A DNA stretch of 35,646 nt, taken from assembly GCA_026415505.1 (NCBI GenBank), contig JAOAGY010000002.1, positions 1 through 35,646 on the forward strand, in the 5' to 3' direction. The notes beneath the pieces were generated by a model. It worked only from the letters and a program-made list of their open reading frames with translations. It ran no database searches and was not told the origin of the DNA. Source of the DNA: Chlorobiota bacterium (GTDB taxonomy: Bacteria; Bacteroidota; Ignavibacteria; Kapaibacteriales; NICIL-2). This document shows, piece by piece, positions 27,439 through 35,646 of this stretch. The position numbers and the translations under genes were made by a program. Position 1 is the first letter of the stretch. Each line of letters begins with the position of its first letter.

Positions 27439-28230
27439 TCAATCGGCGGGAGGTCGGCGAAGGCTCACTGCAGGGGTGTTGCCGAACAGCGCTTGCGCGC
27501 TGCCGTTGCGGACGGCGATTTCGACGAAGCCGCTGCTGCCAACGTAAGCAAGCGGCTCGCCGAGCGGAACGTCGGAGTACGTGCGCACCAGCGGCACAGT
27601 CTCGCTGCCGATATCGCAGAGCCACCCCGCGTGTGGCTCGATATTCCATCGGACTGCTTCGACGTTCGTCACGAGATTGCCGAAACGATCCCGATGGAGA
27701 ATGCACCCGACGATCGAGCCATTGCGTTCGGCTGGCTGGAGATCGAGCCGCAGGAGCATCTCCCCTTCCACGCGGCGACCGAGACGCGCAGCAGCCGACC
27801 CGCCGGATGCCAGCAGTGCTGCCGCTGGCGCAAAAATGTCGCGTCCGTGAAATGTCGCACTCGGAGTCGGGCGTCCCAATCGTTCCCACTCGACCGTAAA
27901 CGCAGTACGCATCCGATAGCGATCGAGCACCAGCGTCGCCAAACCGTTGTCCGGAGCGATGACCCAGAAGCGCTCGAACTCCATCGCGACGATACGCCGA
28001 TCGCTGCCGACGCCTGGATCGACCACCGCGACGACGATGCTGCCCTCGGGCACATACGGCACCGCTGTCAGCAGCACGTATGCAGCCGAGACGACATCTT
28101 GCGGCTCGATGTTGTGGCACAGGTCCACGATGCGCACATCCGGCGCGATACCGAGCATGACCGCTTTCATCACGCCGACGTAGGCATCGCGGTCGCCGAA
28201 ATCGGTCAGCAGAAAAATCGCCGAAGCCAT
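27439..28230 (-). CDS. SAM hydroxide adenosyltransferase (DUF62 family)
   Basis: The 263-aa protein belongs to the SAM-dependent halogenase/hydrolase family. Most members use water to split S-adenosylmethionine into adenosine and methionine; a few are chlorinases or fluorinases. Visible motifs are LLTDFGDRDAYVGVMK, the VVDPGVGSDRR segment holding the hydrolase Asp and Arg, APDNGLATLVL, and FHGRDIFAP with the conserved His. The Asp-Arg-His set favours the hydrolase over a halogenase. The C-terminal barrel has HRDRFGNLVTNV and PLAYVGSSGFVEIAV. It lies alone on the minus strand, upstream of the TonB receptor gene and divergent from the helicase operon. Its role in this organism is unknown. By depleting SAM it could affect methylation, but I see no direct link to the neighbouring methyltransferase. 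Confidence 0.93.
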   Translation of the reverse strand: MASAIFLLTDFGDRDAYVGVMKAVMLGIAPDVRIVDLCHNIEPQDVVSAAYVLLTAVPYVPEGSIVVAVVDPGVGSDRRIVAMEFERFWVIAPDNGLATLVLDRYRMRTAFTVEWERLGRPTPSATFHGRDIFAPAAALLASGGSAAARLGRRVEGEMLLRLDLQPAERNGSIVGCILHRDRFGNLVTNVEAVRWNIEPHAGWLCDIGSETVPLVRTYSDVPLGEPLAYVGSSGFVEIAVRNGSAQALFGNTPAVSLRRPPAD

Positions 28231-28323: not shown

Positions 28324-31300
28324 ATGCCGACAGTCATAGACAACCTCAGCACGACGCTGCTCGACGAGCTGCGCAAACACATCGGCTCTGCCCACCGCAT
28401 GAAAGCCTGCGTCGGTTTTCTCAACCTCAAAGGTTGGTCGGCGCTCGGCGAGTTGATCGAATCCTTCGAGCCGAATCCGAGCGATCCGCCGTGCCGCATT
28501 TTGGTAGGCATGGCGCTCGCCGACGAGGGCGCCGATCCGACGTTGTACGAAGCGCCGATCGTGGACGGCGAGTTCAAGCGCCAACGGCGCGCGCAGGCGA
28601 TCGAGTACTTTCGCCGGCAGATCACGCGCGGCATTCCGACCGCCGCTGCCGAAGCCGCACTCCGCCGGCTGGCGCGCCAACTCCGCAGCGGCAGCGTGCG
28701 CATTAGGTTGTTCGTTCGCCACCCGCTCCACGCCAAGCTCTACTTGCTCGAGCGCCGCGATCCCATCACGCCGCTTGTCGGCTACGTCGGCAGCAGCAAT
28801 CTGACGCTTGCCGGCTTGGCTGGTCAAGGCGAACTCGATGTGGACGTGGTCGAACAAGACGCCGCACGCAAGCTCGAAGCGTGGTTCGACGCGCGCTGGA
28901 ACGACTCGACGCTCGACATCTCCGACGAGCTTGCCGCCATGATTGACGCATCCTGGGCGGGCGAGCCGATCGAACGCATCGAGAACTTACCGTACCTGAT
29001 CTACCTGAAGGTCGCCTACCACTTGTCGGAAAACGCTCGGCTCGGTGCTGCCGAATTTCCTCTGCCGAAAGAACTCCGCAGCACCTTGCTCGATTTTCAG
29101 GTGTCTGCTGTGCAACTGGCTGCCAAGCTCGTCCAGCGCTACGGTGGTGTGCTTTTGGGCGACGTGGTCGGCTTGGGCAAAACGCTGATGGCAACGGCAC
29201 TGGCGCGGCTGCTCTACGAAGCCGATCGCAGCTCGACGCTCGTCATTTGCCCGCCGCGCTTGACCTCGATGTGGGGGCGATACCTCAGCCAGTATCTCCA
29301 CAGCGCCGGCGCGCACGCCCGGGCACTCTCCTCCGGCATGGTGCAAAAAGAACTTCCCACGTTGCCGCGCTTTGCCACGGTGATCCTCGACGAAAGCCAC
29401 AACTTCCGCAACCGCGAGTCGAAGCGCTACAAAGCCATCGCCGAGTACATCGAGCAAAACGATCCCCGCGTGATTTTGCTTTCGGCGACGCCGTTCAACA
29501 AACACTACACGGACCTGGCAAATCAGCTTCGGCTGTTTCTCGACGACAAACAACTGCTCCCCGCCGCGCCGGATCGTTTGCTGGCAAGCTGGCGCGCCAG
29601 TGGACTCGACGTGCGCAAGAAAATCGCCGAGATTGGCGCCGCGCCCGAGACGCTGCACTGCTTCGAGCTGAGCGACTTTCCCGACGATTGGCGCGATCTG
29701 ATGCGGCATTTCATGGTGCGTCGCACGCGAAGCTTCATCATCGCCCACTATGCCAAATACGACGACGCCAAACAGCGCCACTACGTCATGCTCGGCGGCA
29801 AGCCGCACTACTTCCCAAAACGCCAGCCACGCACGATCGCAGTGCCCACCGCCGGCACGCTCTACGAGCAGCTCTACAGCGAGCGCGTCGTCTCGGCAAT
29901 CGAACGGTTGCAGCTTCCGCGCTACGGCTTGGCGCAGTATCTCGACTCGCACGCGCTTGCTGGCGCCAGCGAGGAACACACAAAGATCGCCCAAAACCTG
30001 ACGCGCGCCGGCAAGCGATTGATCGGCTTTGCGCGGACGAATCTCTTCAAGCGGCTCGAATCGAGCGGCACGGCGTTCCTCGAATCGGTGCGCCGGCAGA
30101 TGCTGCGCAATCGCGTGGTGCTCTACGCAATCGAGAACGGACGCGACGTACCCATCGGCGGACAAGACGTCGCCCGCATCCCGCTCGATCCCGACGACGT
30201 CGCCACGTTCGATCCCGATGCAGTCTCTGCCGACGACGGCGACGACACCGAAGCGCAAAGCCTCGCGCTCTCGAGCGGCGACAATGGAAAGGCGCTCTAC
30301 GAAAAGCTCCGCACCGAGTTTGCCGACCGATTCGACTGGCTCCCCTCGCGCTATTTCACCGCCGAGCTTGCGCGCGCGCTCGAAAACGACAACGCCTTGC
30401 TCGGCAGCATTCTCAAGCTCGCCGGCGATTGGCGCGACGATGCCGACCCGAAACTTGTGCAGCTTTACCAGCTCGTCGCCGAACGCCATCGGTTCGACAA
30501 AGTGCTCGTGTTCACGCAATTTGCCGACACCGCCCGCACGATCGGCGACTTCCTTCGCAAAAAAGGCGTGCTCTCGTGCGAGGTGGTCACCGCCGACACA
30601 CCCGACCCCGATGCGATCGTGCGACGCTTCAGCCCGCATTCCAACGGCGGACTGCCCGCCGGCGAAGCACCTCTGCGCGTGCTCGTCGCCACCGACACGC
30701 TCAGCGAAGGGCAGAACTTGCAGGATTGCCACATCGTGGTCAACTTCGACTTGCCCTGGGCGATCGTGCGGCTGATTCAACGTGCCGGACGCGTGGACCG
30801 CATCGGGCAGCAGCACGACACGATCACGGTCTATTCGTTTCTTCCTGCCGACGGCATCGAAAAAATCATCGGGCTGCGGCGACGCTTGCGCCGGCGGCTG
30901 CAAGAAAACCAAGAAGTCATCGGCACCGACGAACGCTTCTTCGACGAAAAGGTGTACGAAGAACTACGCGACCTCTACACCGAAAAAGCGCACGTGCTCG
31001 ACGACAGCGACGACGGCGACGTGGACGTGACCAGCTACGCGCTCCAGGTCTGGAACAGCGCGTCCGAAGCCGACCGCAAACGTGCCCAGGAATTGCCCGA
31101 CCAAGTGTACACCTCGCGCACGAACGACACCGATACCCCCGATGGCGCCATCGTCTTTGCGCGCGTCCACGACGCCGCCGGACGGAGCGATCGTCTCCTT
31201 CGCCTCGACCGAAGCGGCGCACCGCTCGAACACTCGCTGGCGACGATCTTCGATCAGCTCCGCTGCGATCGGAACACGCCGAGCATCCACGATCCGCACG

Positions 31301-31659
31301 TGCTCGATCTGGTGAAAAACGCTGCCGAGACGATCCGAAACGAAACTACCCTGGGCGAAGGCATGCTCGGTTCGAAGAAAAGCCTGCGGCGGCGGTTGTA
31401 CGAGTGTTTGAGCGAAATCGCAAAAACGCACTCGACACTCGCCGCCCCTGCCACTTTCTATGCCGAGCTGGTCTATCGCTTCCCGCTGGTGTCGGCGAGC
31501 CAGTCACAACTGCACGCAGCGCTCAAAGCCTGTTCGGATGAACAACTCATCGAGCTGATCAGCGAGCTGCACAGCGACGGTAAATTCGTGGTCGAAACGG
31601 AACCCATCGAGCGACGCATCGAGATTCTCTGCACCGTGGGATTGAGATCGCAACGATGA
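28324..31659 (+). CDS. PLD-nuclease / SNF2-type helicase fusion
   Basis: This 1111-aa protein has two parts. Residues about 1-200 are a phospholipase D-like nuclease domain with HPLHAKLYLLE (His136, Lys138, Glu143 in place of the usual Asp) and GSSNLTLAGL (156-165). Residues about 260-870 are a superfamily 2 helicase of the SNF2 type: motif I VVGLGKT (281-287), motif II DESH (356-359), motif III SATPFNKH (near 387), motif V VATDTLSEGQNLQ and motif VI QRAGRVDRIGQ (819-829). A helical C-terminal region of about 240 residues follows. ATG 28324 was chosen because upstream frame overlaps the SAM hydrolase antisense. Its stop overlaps the next start as ATGA. With the downstream adenine methyltransferase this looks like a restriction or phage-defence module, perhaps moving along DNA and cleaving. 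The assignment of activity is inferred. Confidence 0.92.
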   Translation: MPTVIDNLSTTLLDELRKHIGSAHRMKACVGFLNLKGWSALGELIESFEPNPSDPPCRILVGMALADEGADPTLYEAPIVDGEFKRQRRAQAIEYFRRQITRGIPTAAAEAALRRLARQLRSGSVRIRLFVRHPLHAKLYLLERRDPITPLVGYVGSSNLTLAGLAGQGELDVDVVEQDAARKLEAWFDARWNDSTLDISDELAAMIDASWAGEPIERIENLPYLIYLKVAYHLSENARLGAAEFPLPKELRSTLLDFQVSAVQLAAKLVQRYGGVLLGDVVGLGKTLMATALARLLYEADRSSTLVICPPRLTSMWGRYLSQYLHSAGAHARALSSGMVQKELPTLPRFATVILDESHNFRNRESKRYKAIAEYIEQNDPRVILLSATPFNKHYTDLANQLRLFLDDKQLLPAAPDRLLASWRASGLDVRKKIAEIGAAPETLHCFELSDFPDDWRDLMRHFMVRRTRSFIIAHYAKYDDAKQRHYVMLGGKPHYFPKRQPRTIAVPTAGTLYEQLYSERVVSAIERLQLPRYGLAQYLDSHALAGASEEHTKIAQNLTRAGKRLIGFARTNLFKRLESSGTAFLESVRRQMLRNRVVLYAIENGRDVPIGGQDVARIPLDPDDVATFDPDAVSADDGDDTEAQSLALSSGDNGKALYEKLRTEFADRFDWLPSRYFTAELARALENDNALLGSILKLAGDWRDDADPKLVQLYQLVAERHRFDKVLVFTQFADTARTIGDFLRKKGVLSCEVVTADTPDPDAIVRRFSPHSNGGLPAGEAPLRVLVATDTLSEGQNLQDCHIVVNFDLPWAIVRLIQRAGRVDRIGQQHDTITVYSFLPADGIEKIIGLRRRLRRRLQENQEVIGTDERFFDEKVYEELRDLYTEKAHVLDDSDDGDVDVTSYALQVWNSASEADRKRAQELPDQVYTSRTNDTDTPDGAIVFARVHDAAGRSDRLLRLDRSGAPLEHSLATIFDQLRCDRNTPSIHDPHVLDLVKNAAETIRNETTLGEGMLGSKKSLRRRLYECLSEIAKTHSTLAAPATFYAELVYRFPLVSASQSQLHAALKACSDEQLIELISELHSDGKFVVETEPIERRIEILCTVGLRSQR

Positions 31660-32681
31660 ACGGCGACGCACTGCGACGCTACATGCTCGAAGCGCTGCAC
31701 TGGAACAGTGCAAAGGGCGCTGTGACGCTTTCGCTCGGCGCGATGGGCGAGACGACCGCACCTGCGATCGCCGCTGCACCGCCGGTCGTTGCATTTTTCG
31801 TCGCGTGCGAGGGCACCGGCATTCCACCGCTGTGGATGCAGAAGAAACTCGCCGCTCATGCCGCAAAAGAGTATCCCCATCCGCTGATCGTCTTTTCCGA
31901 CGGCAAGCGGCTGGCGTGGCATTTCGCCGGCTGCACGGTCGAAACGCCGCTGCCGCTACCATCGCCGGACGACTCGCCCTTTCTCGGCACGCTGCGCATC
32001 CCGCTCGATCACACGATCACACCCTTGGCGATACTCGAGCGCATCGAAGGCGCTTTTGTCGAATCACAGGAGAAACCCGATATGCAAGCATCCCACCCGC
32101 TGATCGAAGCCGGAGAGCAGTTCCTCCGCGCTATCGAAATCGCCATCGAGCAAACCAGCACACTCATCACCGATGCGATGCTCGGAAAAGGACCGCTCGG
32201 CAGAAACGACGCACTCGAGCTGCTCCAGCATCTGGCGCAACTGCGCGAAAAGGCATTGGTCGTCACCGGCGAAGCCCGCGATCTGCTCCAGCGCTATCCG
32301 CAGCTCCCGACGCCGAGCGCTTTGCACTCGATCGTCGCAAAAGCAAAGGCGGCACCGCACAAAAAGAAATACGTTGCCGGTCCCACCACGCCACAAGCTG
32401 CGTTCCGATGCCCCATCCTGCAAGCACTCATCGAGCGTGGCGGCAGCGGCAGTGCCTCCGACATCCTCGATCGCGTTTTCGAGCTGATGAAACACCGGCT
32501 AACGAAAGCAGACATAGAGCTAATAGTCAGCAACGAGCCAAAATGGCGAAACACCGCTCGTTGGGAGCGAAAAAAGATGATCGAAGAAGGTTTACTCCGC
32601 AACGATTCTCCTACTGGCATCTGGGAGATCACCGAAAGCGGTCGCCGCTACTACCACACCCACTGCAAAGGCACGCCATGA
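31656..32681 (+). CDS. Mrr_N-type winged-helix protein between helicase and methyltransferase
   Basis: The 341-aa protein lies between the helicase and methyltransferase genes, overlapping both by ATGA. Residues about 1-130 are of unknown fold, with segments WMQKKLAAHAAKEYPHPLIV and RLAWHFAGCTVETP. Residues about 140-220 are helical (IEAGEQFLRAIEIAIEQTST). Residues about 245-335 match the Mrr N-terminal winged-helix domain: FRCPILQALIERGGSGSASD, LTKADIELI, then PKWRNTARWERKKMIEEGLL and GIWEITESGRRYYHTH. This domain binds DNA in Mrr restriction enzymes. No nuclease motif (D-ExK) is visible, so I read it as a DNA-recognition or regulatory subunit. Function not established. Confidence 0.82.
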   Translation: MNGDALRRYMLEALHWNSAKGAVTLSLGAMGETTAPAIAAAPPVVAFFVACEGTGIPPLWMQKKLAAHAAKEYPHPLIVFSDGKRLAWHFAGCTVETPLPLPSPDDSPFLGTLRIPLDHTITPLAILERIEGAFVESQEKPDMQASHPLIEAGEQFLRAIEIAIEQTSTLITDAMLGKGPLGRNDALELLQHLAQLREKALVVTGEARDLLQRYPQLPTPSALHSIVAKAKAAPHKKKYVAGPTTPQAAFRCPILQALIERGGSGSASDILDRVFELMKHRLTKADIELIVSNEPKWRNTARWERKKMIEEGLLRNDSPTGIWEITESGRRYYHTHCKGTP

Positions 32682-35646
32682 CACCGCACGATCCACGCTT
32701 TATCCGGCGCATCGCCGAGCGACTCGACGACCCCACGGGCGACAATCTCCGCCGGCTGTTCGGCGAGGACTTGGGCTGGAAGAGCGACCGCGGCACACAG
32801 CAGCTCGACGTGTCGAAACCGATCGGCGCATCGCTTCCGCTCGAACGCATCGCGCGCGCCGGCGGGGTGCAGGTCTTCGCGCTGGCGATGGACCGGCTGC
32901 CGACGCTCACTGAACGCCGCGCCATCATGCGCGCGCTGCAACCGATCGCCTACCATCACGTGGTGATCTATCGCGCCGAGGGCGAACTGGCGCTCGTCTG
33001 GACCAACGCGGGCAGCCGGGACACCGCTATCGAGCTGCGGCTGCTGCCCTACACCATCGGCGCACCGGCGCGAACCACCCTCGAACGGCTTGCGCACTTG
33101 CACCTGCCGCTCGACCGCGACCCCTCGCTCGCCGACGTTCTGGCGCGACTCGACGATGCCTTCAGCGTCGAAGCCGTCACCGAGCAGTTTTTCGACGACT
33201 ACCGCCGCGTCTTCCACACGCTCGAAGATATGCTCGCCCGGCAAACCGGCGACGTCCGCTGGGCGCACGATTACGCGCTGCAACTTTTGAACCGCATCGT
33301 GTTCCTCTACTTCATCCAACGCAAGCGCTTCGCCGAAGGCGAATACTGGCTGGGCAACGACCCGCGCTTCATTCTCCACTTTTGGCAAGCGTACAAAACG
33401 TCGGCGCGACCGAAAGACACCTTTTTCGCCGAATGGCTCTCGGTGCTCTTTTTCGAAGCGTTCAACAATCGCTTCCAAGCCGGACGCAGCGACCGCCGCT
33501 ATTTGCCCGACGCAATCCGCGATGCTCTGGCTCAAGCGCCGTACCTCAACGGCGGACTGTTCAGCCGTAACCGGCTCGACGAGCAATACGCCGCCACCGT
33601 GACGGACGACTTTTTCGCGCTGCTCTTCGATGAATTCGACGGTTCGACGCCCGGCTTTCTCGAACGCTACAACTTCACCATTGCCGAATCCACACCGTTC
33701 GAAGTCGAGGTCGCCGTGGACCCTGAAATGATCGGCAAGGTCTATGAAAGCCTGGTCAACATCACCTCCGAGGGAATCGTCGAAGAAGACCAGCGCGGCT
33801 CAGCCGGCATTTTCTACACCTCGCGGGTCGAAATTGACCTGATGTGTCGCCTGGCGCTCGTGGACGCTCTCGCCAATCGGCTCGGCGCAGACAAAAAACC
33901 GCTCCTCTACGACGCCGTCTTCGCTTACGAACCAGCCGAGAAAGAGGCTGCCGACGCCGCACTCGCCGCGCACAATCTCTGGCCCGAGCTCGACCGGCAG
34001 CTCCGCGACATCACCATCTGCGATCCCGCCTGCGGCTCCGGCTCGTTCCTGGTCGGCATGTTGCTTGTGCTCGACGACCTCCAAGCCCGCGCCAATGCCC
34101 AGCTGGGCCGCGAGGAAACCCCCTACGAACGCCGGCGCCGCATCATCGGCGAGCAGCTCTACGGCGTGGACGTGATGGACTGGGCCGTCCACGTGGCTGA
34201 ACTGCGCCTCTGGCTCCAACTCGTCGTCGAAACCGACCTCGAACCCGCTGAGCTCAAATTCCGCCCTCTCCTGCCTAACCTCTCCTTCAAAATCCGCTGC
34301 GGCGATAGCCTGGTGCAGGAAATCGGCGGCATAGACTTCGGTCTCCACCGCGCGCATCTGGACATCTCGCCTCATCTCAAAGGCCGCCTCACCCAGCTCA
34401 AAGGCAAAAAACTCCGCTTTTACCAGGGCGAACAAGGCTTGCGCGAAACCGACATCAAAAAAGAAGAACTCGATCTTTTCCGCGACATCCTCGACCACAA
34501 ACGACACGCGCTGCAAAACCACATCGCCGCGTTCACCCGCCAGATCGAATCGCCGGCCGAGCAAGTCGCGCTGCCGGGAATGGACGCCCCCACCGATCGG
34601 GCTGCACATCAACGCCGCCTCGAGCAGCTCCGCGCCGAACGCGAGGAGAAGCAAGCCGAACTCGCCCGCATCACCAGCGCGCTCGGTGCGCTCCGTAGCG
34701 CGCAGCAGGTCCCCTTTGTCTGGGACATTGCCTTCGTGGAAATCTTCGAGGGGGACAAAGGCGGCTTCGACATCGTCATCGGCAATCCGCCCTATGTGCG
34801 CCAGGAAAAGATCGCCCCGCCCACGCTTGATCCCAACGACTTCGGTGGCGAAACGTCCGACCGCTGGAAAGAGCAGAAGAAAGCCTACAAAGCCAAACTC
34901 CAGCAGTCCGTTGCCGCCGCCTGGCCGCGCTTCTTCCGCTACAGACCCGGTAGAGCCGACTTCCGCAAGCTCGACGGCAAAAGCGACCTCTACATCTACT
35001 TCTACCTGCACGGGCTAGCGCTGCTCAACCCGCAAGGCAGCTTCTGCTTCATCACCTCCAACTCCTGGCTCGATGTTGGCTACGGCGCAGACCTGCAGGA
35101 GTTCCTCCTCAAACACAGCCATGTCAAGTTCATCCTCGACAACGAGCGCAAGCGCTCGTTTGCGCAGGCCGACGTCAACACGATCATCGCGCTGCTCGCC
35201 CCGCCCGACGACCGCCGCGAGCACGGGCTGGAGCACACCGCGCGCTTTGTGATGTTCACGGTGCCGTTCGAGGAGGTGCTCAGCGCCGAGACGTTCAAGG
35301 CGCTCGAGGCCGCCACCGAACGCCGGCGCACCGACCGCTGGCGCATCACCGTCGTGCCCCAACGCCAGCTCTTCGAGGAAGGCGTCGCCCGCGAGGAAGA
35401 CGAGGAAGCAACGCCCGGCAAACCCACAAAATCCCGCGGCCCGCTCATCAAGACCGCCCGCTACGAAGCCAACAAATGGGGCGGCAAATACCTGCGCGCC
35501 CCGGAAATCTTCTTCACCATTCTGGAGAAGGGCCGTAAGGGCGACCCGTCGGGTCGTCCCCTCCTCGTCCGTCTCGGCGACATCGCCGAAGTGCGTCGCG
35601 GCTTCACGACCGGTGCCAACGAGTTTTTCTACCTCGACGAGGAAAA
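32678..35646 (+). CDS. Eco57I-like N6-adenine DNA methyltransferase (3' end beyond window)
   Basis: Frame is open from ATG 32678 to the right edge, giving 989 complete codons; the C-terminus is missing. The SAM-binding motif I DPACGSGSF is at 449-457 and the catalytic motif IV NPPY at 703-706 (GNPPYVRQEK), typical of N6-adenine methyltransferases of the Eco57I and type I classes. The N-terminal 440 residues include a long helical domain (ALQLLNRIVFLYFIQRKRFA). A coiled-coil-like insert lies at about 605-675 (HQRRLEQLRAEREEKQAELA). Near the edge LGDIAEVRRGFTTGANEFFY begins a target-recognition domain. I see no obvious PD-ExK nuclease domain at the N-terminus, so methylation alone or methylation plus cleavage by the PLD-helicase is likely. 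ATG overlaps the preceding stop (ATGA). The partial protein is long compared with stand-alone methyltransferases and resembles those in type IIG and DISARM-like systems. Confidence 0.92.
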   Translation, partial: MTPHDPRFIRRIAERLDDPTGDNLRRLFGEDLGWKSDRGTQQLDVSKPIGASLPLERIARAGGVQVFALAMDRLPTLTERRAIMRALQPIAYHHVVIYRAEGELALVWTNAGSRDTAIELRLLPYTIGAPARTTLERLAHLHLPLDRDPSLADVLARLDDAFSVEAVTEQFFDDYRRVFHTLEDMLARQTGDVRWAHDYALQLLNRIVFLYFIQRKRFAEGEYWLGNDPRFILHFWQAYKTSARPKDTFFAEWLSVLFFEAFNNRFQAGRSDRRYLPDAIRDALAQAPYLNGGLFSRNRLDEQYAATVTDDFFALLFDEFDGSTPGFLERYNFTIAESTPFEVEVAVDPEMIGKVYESLVNITSEGIVEEDQRGSAGIFYTSRVEIDLMCRLALVDALANRLGADKKPLLYDAVFAYEPAEKEAADAALAAHNLWPELDRQLRDITICDPACGSGSFLVGMLLVLDDLQARANAQLGREETPYERRRRIIGEQLYGVDVMDWAVHVAELRLWLQLVVETDLEPAELKFRPLLPNLSFKIRCGDSLVQEIGGIDFGLHRAHLDISPHLKGRLTQLKGKKLRFYQGEQGLRETDIKKEELDLFRDILDHKRHALQNHIAAFTRQIESPAEQVALPGMDAPTDRAAHQRRLEQLRAEREEKQAELARITSALGALRSAQQVPFVWDIAFVEIFEGDKGGFDIVIGNPPYVRQEKIAPPTLDPNDFGGETSDRWKEQKKAYKAKLQQSVAAAWPRFFRYRPGRADFRKLDGKSDLYIYFYLHGLALLNPQGSFCFITSNSWLDVGYGADLQEFLLKHSHVKFILDNERKRSFAQADVNTIIALLAPPDDRREHGLEHTARFVMFTVPFEEVLSAETFKALEAATERRRTDRWRITVVPQRQLFEEGVAREEDEEATPGKPTKSRGPLIKTARYEANKWGGKYLRAPEIFFTILEKGRKGDPSGRPLLVRLGDIAEVRRGFTTGANEFFYLDEE

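What the first reader, a model, noticed from the sequence alone, without database searches (positions are those of the whole stretch)
28324..35646. Coupled PLD-helicase, Mrr_N winged-helix and adenine methyltransferase operon: candidate anti-phage system
Three genes joined by ATGA overlaps encode a PLD-nuclease/SNF2-helicase fusion, a protein with an Mrr-type DNA-binding domain, and a large Eco57I-like methyltransferase. The set resembles class 1 DISARM (SNF2 helicase plus methylase) and other helicase-methylase systems, but DISARM drmA and drmB are not seen and the nuclease is fused to the helicase with an unassigned middle protein. The full operon may continue past the edge.
Basis: partly seen in the sequence, partly recalled or inferred. 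Interest (0 to 1): 0.82.

Follow-up and report, generated by a model that had tools for sequence, protein, structure and literature searches.

The report
Three-gene ATP-driven restriction-modification operon
A hot-spring bacterium carries a compact three-gene operon that most likely marks its own DNA by adenine methylation and uses an ATP-driven motor fused to a nuclease to cut unmarked invading DNA; the motor-methylase core is widespread but barely described, and the middle gene, which reuses part of the methylase joined to a DNA-binding domain, is a new variation on it.

Summary
Three genes joined by two ATGA overlaps encode a PLD-nuclease/SNF2 translocase (1111 aa), a 341-aa protein ending in an Mrr_N winged helix, and an Eco57I/MmeI-type adenine methyltransferase cut off by the contig end. 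It is not DISARM: the DrmD model scores 139 bits against a cut-off of 610, and the drmB-type MZB domain is absent from the genome. The core is a recurrent two-gene ATP-dependent restriction-modification module: a methyltransferase lay beside the PLD-SNF2 gene in 10/10 relatives outside the genus, and in all 10 IMG/VR relatives with the PLD motif against 0 of 70 without it. Plasmids of many phyla, archaea included, carry it. Papers mention it only in passing (Lactococcus pLd8) or as 'Type IIG' (probably Prevotella Pin17FIII). What is new is the middle gene, found in two kapabacterial genomes only: its N-terminal half copies the methyltransferase's own N-terminal domain, which lacks nuclease motifs, fused to a winged helix. 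One IMG/VR locus has the same two modules beside the pair, as separate genes. New variant of a known kind; the middle gene's role and all activities are inferred.

The parts
28324..31659 (+). Gene 1: PLD nuclease fused to SNF2 translocase, 1111 aa
   Evidence: Pfam PLDc_2, SNF2-rel_dom, Helicase_C; 14-row alignment keeps H136, K138, G156-N159, E170, Walker A, DESH and motif VI
28648..28899 (+). PLD domain, residues 109-192, with HAKLYLLE = H(X)K(X)4E and GSSN
29158..29184 (+). Walker A motif GDVVGLGKT, residues 279-287
31656..31659 (+). ATGA start-stop overlap between genes 1 and 2
31656..32681 (+). Gene 2: accessory protein, methyltransferase-N-like domain plus helical linker plus winged helix, 341 aa
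   Evidence: conserved in place in G247
31656..32072 (+). Copy of the methyltransferase N-domain, residues 1-139
   Evidence: pairwise E 5e-6; profile E 7e-8; HMM without kapabacterial sequences E 6.5e-5
32403..32651 (+). Mrr_N winged helix, residues 250-332
   Evidence: Pfam E 3.5e-11; VIA Z 10.1, rmsd 2.4, 83 aligned with STIV F93
32678..32681 (+). ATGA start-stop overlap between genes 2 and 3
32678..35646 (+). Gene 3: Eco57I/MmeI-type adenine methyltransferase, truncated by the contig end
   Evidence: intact 1278-aa relative in L085
32678..33205 (+). Methyltransferase N-domain, residues 1-176, without a conserved PD-(D/E)XK triad
34019..34045 (+). SAM-binding motif DPACGSGSF, residues 448-457 region
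34784..34795 (+). Catalytic motif NPPY, residues 703-706

Best explanation
This is an ATP-dependent restriction-modification operon. The Eco57I/IIG-like protein recognises a DNA site and methylates adenine there to mark self DNA; its N-terminal domain, where Type IIG enzymes carry their nuclease, appears to have no active site. Cleavage is supplied in trans by the PLD-SNF2 protein, which would dimerise through its PLD domains, be loaded at unmethylated sites together with the methyltransferase, translocate on ATP and cut, much as SauUSI and CglI do. The middle protein is an accessory subunit: its methyltransferase-N-like half would dock onto the same partner as the methyltransferase N-domain (probably the helicase), and its winged helix adds a DNA contact or senses DNA state. 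Shown here: gene content, coupling, conserved linkage, intact catalytic motifs, homology of the two N-domains, partner swapping in trees. Inferred: methylation, cleavage, translocation, docking and anti-phage effect.
For: Methyltransferase directly downstream of the PLD-SNF2 gene in 10/10 relatives outside the genus, on plasmids of several phyla, and in reverse order with the closest methyltransferase relatives. IMG/VR: 10/10 with the PLD motif against 0/70 without it. PLD, motor and methyltransferase motifs intact; H(X)K(X)4E as in SauUSI. N-domain tracks helicase clade while the methyltransferase core belongs to the other clade. Precedents: CglI/NgoAVII (PMC4267653), SauUSI (PMC7913695), Pin17FIII m6A with an upstream SNF2-type helicase (PMC5608340).
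Against: No activity has been measured for these genes. The methyltransferase is truncated by the contig, so function of this copy and the genes downstream are unknown. The nuclease-like fold of the N-domain rests on weak matches (Z 5.8, with unrelated racemases close behind). The docking role is inferred from a small tree sample. Homology of Pin17FIII to gene 3 was not tested.
Confidence: 0.7

Rival explanations
1. The middle protein is a regulator of the operon, like a C protein, and is not part of the restriction complex.
For: Winged helix; related small Mrr_N proteins occur as orphans (L021, L022, L082, L083); in L089 the N-like domain is fused to sigma-70 regions 2 and 4.
Against: Gene 2 is in the middle of the operon with translational coupling on both sides and half of it copies the methyltransferase N-domain, which a plain regulator would not need.
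Confidence: 0.3
2. The set is a fragment of class 1 DISARM or of the ARMADA group whose other genes lie past the contig edge.
For: SNF2 helicase plus large adenine methyltransferase; the contig ends inside gene 3; DrmD and DrmMI profiles match.
Against: DrmD 139 of 610 bits; MZB absent from the genome while it rings in 8 of 14 control genomes; intact relatives L042-L049 and L085 show no drmA/drmB-like partner in the neighbouring ORFs listed, judged by eye.
Confidence: 0.04
3. It is a Type-2 BREX-related system (DUF499 ATPase, DUF1156 methyltransferase, DUF3780, HKD-SNF2 helicase).
For: Same HKD-SNF2 fusion effector (PMC12839542); a DUF499 gene exists in the genome on contig C28.
Against: NF042964 helicase model 138 of 1100 bits; no DUF1156 match in gene 3; DUF499 is on another contig, and its neighbours do not include these genes.
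Confidence: 0.04
4. The operon serves methylation-based gene regulation or is decaying, with no restriction activity.
For: No restriction has been shown for a close relative; L062 shows a decayed copy; gene position is shared with G247, so it is partly vertically inherited.
Against: Sporadic distribution (12 of 395 genomes), plasmid carriage and strict conservation of nuclease and ATPase residues.
Confidence: 0.12

Closest known systems
Lactococcus lactis FM03P plasmid pLd8 orf33-orf34 (PMC6098607)
   Same: PLD-SNF2-helicase protein next to a 'Type IIG' methyltransferase without a restriction domain; the authors already proposed that the PLD protein cuts
   Different: No N-domain/winged-helix middle gene is described; noted in passing only, not tested. 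Its sequence was not compared here; a related Lactococcus plasmid locus (L067) was
Prevotella intermedia Pin17FIII (PMC5608340)
   Same: IIG-like m6A methyltransferase (GGYGAB shown by SMRT) with an upstream SNF2/RAD54 helicase
   Different: Has an inverted second methyltransferase-like gene, no winged-helix middle gene; homology to gene 3 not tested directly
Type-2 BREX-related systems (PMC12839542)
   Same: HKD-SNF2 fusion as effector, N6 methyltransferase
   Different: Needs DUF499 ATPase and DUF3780; methyltransferase carries DUF1156; helicase model far below cut-off
Class 1 DISARM
   Same: SNF2 helicase and large adenine methyltransferase
   Different: drmA and drmB missing; nuclease fused to the helicase; DrmD cut-off not reached
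SauUSI (Type IV, PMC7913695)
   Same: PLD nuclease with H(X)K(X)4E fused to an SF2 motor
   Different: SauUSI is a single protein with its own domain for modified cytosine; here a methyltransferase partner is present
CglI / NgoAVII (PMC4267653)
   Same: PLD nuclease depending on an SF2 ATPase plus a methyltransferase
   Different: There nuclease and ATPase are separate proteins, with a B3 recognition domain on the nuclease; here they are fused

Membership tests
Two-gene PLD-SNF2 + IIG-like methyltransferase module (pLd8 type) | PLD domain with intact motif fused to an SNF2 motor | tested here: met
Two-gene PLD-SNF2 + IIG-like methyltransferase module (pLd8 type) | Eco57I/IIG-like methyltransferase in the same operon | tested here: met
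Two-gene PLD-SNF2 + IIG-like methyltransferase module (pLd8 type) | Restriction and m6A activity | not testable with these tools
   needs cloning and methylome
Class 1 DISARM | DrmD-family helicase above the curated cut-off | tested here: not met
   139 of 610 bits
Class 1 DISARM | drmB (MZB domain) | tested here: not met
   MZB absent from the genome, control genomes positive; assembly has gaps
Class 1 DISARM | drmA helicase in the locus | tested here: inconclusive
   not in the window stretch read; contig ends inside gene 3
Type IIG restriction enzyme | Active nuclease domain in the same chain as the methyltransferase | tested here: not met
   no conserved acid/lysine triad in the N-domain of 17 relatives; inference from sequence only
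Type IIG restriction enzyme | Eco57I/MmeI-type methyltransferase core | tested here: met
Type-2 BREX-related | DUF499 ATPase in the locus | tested here: not met
   only on contig C28; the right edge is open
Type-2 BREX-related | helicase above the NF042964 cut-off | tested here: not met
   138 of 1100 bits
Type ISP (LlaGI) | nuclease, motor and methyltransferase in one chain | tested here: not met
   separate chains
CglI/NgoAVII type | separate PLD nuclease and helicase genes | tested here: not met
   fused in gene 1
SauUSI (Type IV) | own recognition domain for modified bases, no methyltransferase partner | tested here: not met
   no such Pfam domain in gene 1; a methyltransferase is linked

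The most novel reading that the evidence does not exclude
The methyltransferase N-domain is a general docking module of these systems, a nuclease-like fold turned adaptor, and 'third subunits' made of that module plus a DNA-binding domain (winged helix here, sigma-70 regions 2 and 4 in IMG/VR locus L089) plug into the same motor to give it a second mode of target choice or infection sensing beside methylation status.
Probability: 0.25. Interest if true: 0.72.

Novelty: new variant of a known kind. Interest (0 to 1): 0.5.

Why it matters
A widespread restriction module is hidden in current databases as 'Type IIG' plus 'helicase-related protein': PADLOC scores the methyltransferase of a close two-gene relative as Type IIG at 1081 bits, although its N-terminal domain appears inert and the linked helicase carries the nuclease. 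Treating the pair as one system would correct many annotations. The middle gene suggests that a catalytically silent domain was reused as an assembly module, which a few pull-downs could test.

Tried and rejected
DISARM and BREX-related membership were tested and not met. P0002 full-length relatives: none on plasmids, only the known kapabacterial contig in 84,980 species genomes (few short patterns, so sensitivity is limited), none in viral contigs. Gene 1 relatives in phage records: none. Close gene 3 relatives in viral contigs: none. The missing C-terminus of the methyltransferase was sought twice in the own genome, nothing found. PDB sequence searches gave only generic SNF2/RapA matches for gene 1, a weak MmeI match for gene 3 and none for gene 2. 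Foldseek gave no match at E <= 0.001 for either model. A literature search for the Synechocystis pSYSX methylase found nothing in the held library; the gene name used was from memory. The G043 copy could not serve as an intact third example: its two versions carry conflicting frameshifts at the overlapping ends of an unclosed contig. One script stopped with an error after the N-domain HMM results were printed; the comparison of methyltransferase-core HMMs was therefore not done and the clade statement rests on the trees.

Full report
WHAT IS THERE. The three genes exist as described. Gene 1 (28324-31659) encodes a PLD domain followed by an SNF2 motor; gene 2 (31656-32681) ends in an Mrr_N winged helix; gene 3 (32678 to the contig end) is an Eco57I/MmeI-type methyltransferase. 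Both junctions are ATGA overlaps. The window is a complete contig of a 2.29-Mb genome, so the methyltransferase is truncated by the assembly. The nearest named relative is a Candidatus Kapaibacterium MAG, SKYG14, whose contig L070 has the same length and match as G247:C71. An intact relative (L085) has a 1278-aa methyltransferase, about 250 residues longer than what is seen here.

THE CORE IS A WIDESPREAD TWO-GENE MODULE. A search of 395 genomes of the phylum found strong gene 1 matches in 12 genomes. In the nine loci outside the genus (L041-L049) and in the later-found L085, an Eco57I-like methyltransferase follows on the same strand, usually overlapping or within a dozen bases; L047 has one KilA-N gene between. 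On plasmids, gene 1 relatives occur in Synechocystis PCC 6803, Pelobacter, Anabaena, Rhodococcus, Gordonia, Pseudarthrobacter and others, again with a methyltransferase; one (L062) has a degenerate PLD motif and only a methyltransferase-N remnant. Searching with gene 3 instead found plasmids of Thermus, Allomeiothermus, Halorussus, Thermococcus, Prevotella and Lactococcus, and the seven regions opened all have an SNF2 gene with a PLD motif nearby. In IMG/VR, of 80 SNF2 loci, all ten that keep the PLD motif have the methyltransferase and none of the other seventy do (for L089 and L090 the helicase was the tblastn match itself, since the simple ORF picker dropped it; L089's was then read in full). 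Fisher p is 6e-13, but sequences are related, so this is only a guide.

CATALYTIC STATE. Gene 1 keeps H136, K138, GSSN 156-159 and E170, the Walker A motif, DESH and the motif VI arginines; gene 3 keeps DPACGSGSF and NPPY. The PLD motif reads H(X)K(X)4E, the form described for the ATP-driven nuclease SauUSI (PMC7913695). The N-domain of the methyltransferase, where Type IIG enzymes carry a nuclease, shows no conserved acid/lysine triad in 17 sequences. Its AF2 model (pLDDT 85) has its best VIA match to the N-terminal region of the Type IIG enzyme DrdV (7lvv_C residues 2-143, Z 5.8, rmsd 3.8, 116 aligned), with BpuSI at Z 4.9; unrelated racemases score nearly as high, so this is a lead, not proof.

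THE MIDDLE GENE. Residues 1-139 are homologous to the methyltransferase N-domain: pairwise E 5e-6, profile E 7e-8 against the own genome, E 6.5e-5 with an HMM built without kapabacterial sequences. Residues 250-332 form a winged helix. The whole gene is found only here and in G247, where the order is the same, gene 2 is 37% identical and its neighbours are 64% and 69% identical. G247 also has the start of gene 1 at the end of another contig. G398 lacks the middle gene; in G043 it is not detectable, with the caveat of frameshifts. IMG/VR locus L089 gives a parallel: behind its helicase and methyltransferase lie a separate Mrr_N protein of the same family and a protein that joins a methyltransferase-N-like domain (E 3e-33) to sigma-70 regions 2 and 4.

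PARTNER SWAPPING. In trees of 29 loci, the window and L085 helicases group with clade A (split support 1.0), but their methyltransferases group with the archaeal members of clade B (support 1.0). A clade-A-only HMM still recognises the N-domain of the window methyltransferase (E 1.4e-16), while a clade-B HMM aligns only from residue 113 on. The simplest reading is that the N-domain stays with the helicase type while the methyltransferase core was exchanged, as expected of a docking domain. This is inference from a small sample.

MECHANISM. The best-supported model is an ATP-dependent restriction-modification system in which the methyltransferase recognises and marks, and the PLD-SNF2 protein translocates and cuts, with the middle protein as an extra docked DNA-contacting subunit. 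CglI/NgoAVII show that a nuclease can depend on a separate ATPase (PMC4267653) and have PLD nucleases; SauUSI shows the PLD-SF2 fusion working by translocation. Pin17FIII, a 'IIG' methyltransferase with an upstream SNF2-type helicase, was shown to methylate adenine in GGYGAB (PMC5608340). Nothing has been measured for the window genes.

WHAT IS KNOWN. The pair was described in passing for Lactococcus plasmid pLd8, where the authors already suggested that the PLD protein does the cutting and noted the likeness to class 1 DISARM (PMC6098607). PADLOC scores the methyltransferase as Type IIG, at 1081 bits for a two-gene relative. Similar HKD-SNF2 fusions serve Type-2 BREX-related systems (PMC12839542). 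The window helicase is far below the curated cut-offs of DrmD (139 of 610) and of the anti-phage PLD helicase NF042964 (138 of 1100); MZB is absent from the genome, and DUF499 is present only on another contig.

VERDICT. Observation confirmed; DISARM analogy superficial; the two-gene core is a known but poorly described kind; the three-gene form with a reused N-domain is a new variant.

Noticed in passing
L068 9015-9061 and 11706-11752 (Prevotella nigrescens plasmid NZ_CP082843): A 47-bp inverted repeat (96%) links the methyltransferase gene to an inverted Eco57I-like fragment, with an Mpi-family recombinase nearby: probable specificity switching by inversion. A similar arrangement could explain the unassigned motifs of P. 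intermedia 17F (PMC5608340).
   Followed up: partly
L089 13145-14335: Methyltransferase-N-like domain fused to sigma-70 regions 2 and 4, next to an Mrr_N protein and a DprA-like protein.
   Followed up: partly
L044, L047, L048, L088, L089, L090, L091, downstream of the methyltransferase: A DprA-like gene (PF02481; five of seven tested by Pfam, mostly below the cut-off) recurs behind the pair.
   Followed up: partly
L047 9422-10249 and L108 10155-10988: KilA-N proteins lie between helicase and methyltransferase in two distant clades; the gap between the two core genes seems to be a slot for accessory genes.
   Followed up: no
70 of the IMG/VR loci L095-L166, e.g. L117 6476-9706: About 1076-aa SNF2 helicases with a conserved N-terminal domain but no HKD motif and no methyltransferase partner, common in viral or proviral contigs. 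Role unknown.
   Followed up: no
G000:C28 32225-34072 (L167-L169): The genome holds a separate DUF499 ATPase gene near the end of contig C28, so a second defence system may be present.
   Followed up: no
L050 and L051 (G043 contig ends): A 'complete' contig whose ends overlap by about 10.7 kb at 98.9% identity with conflicting frameshifts: an unclosed circle with assembly errors.
   Followed up: yes
window 35646 and L020 position 1: Two independent MAG contigs both end inside the 3' part of the methyltransferase, where specificity is expected; strain variation there is one possible cause.
   Followed up: no
window 27439-28230 (-): The divergent neighbour of the operon looks by eye like an S-adenosylmethionine hydrolase (DUF62) family protein; not tested.
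   Followed up: no
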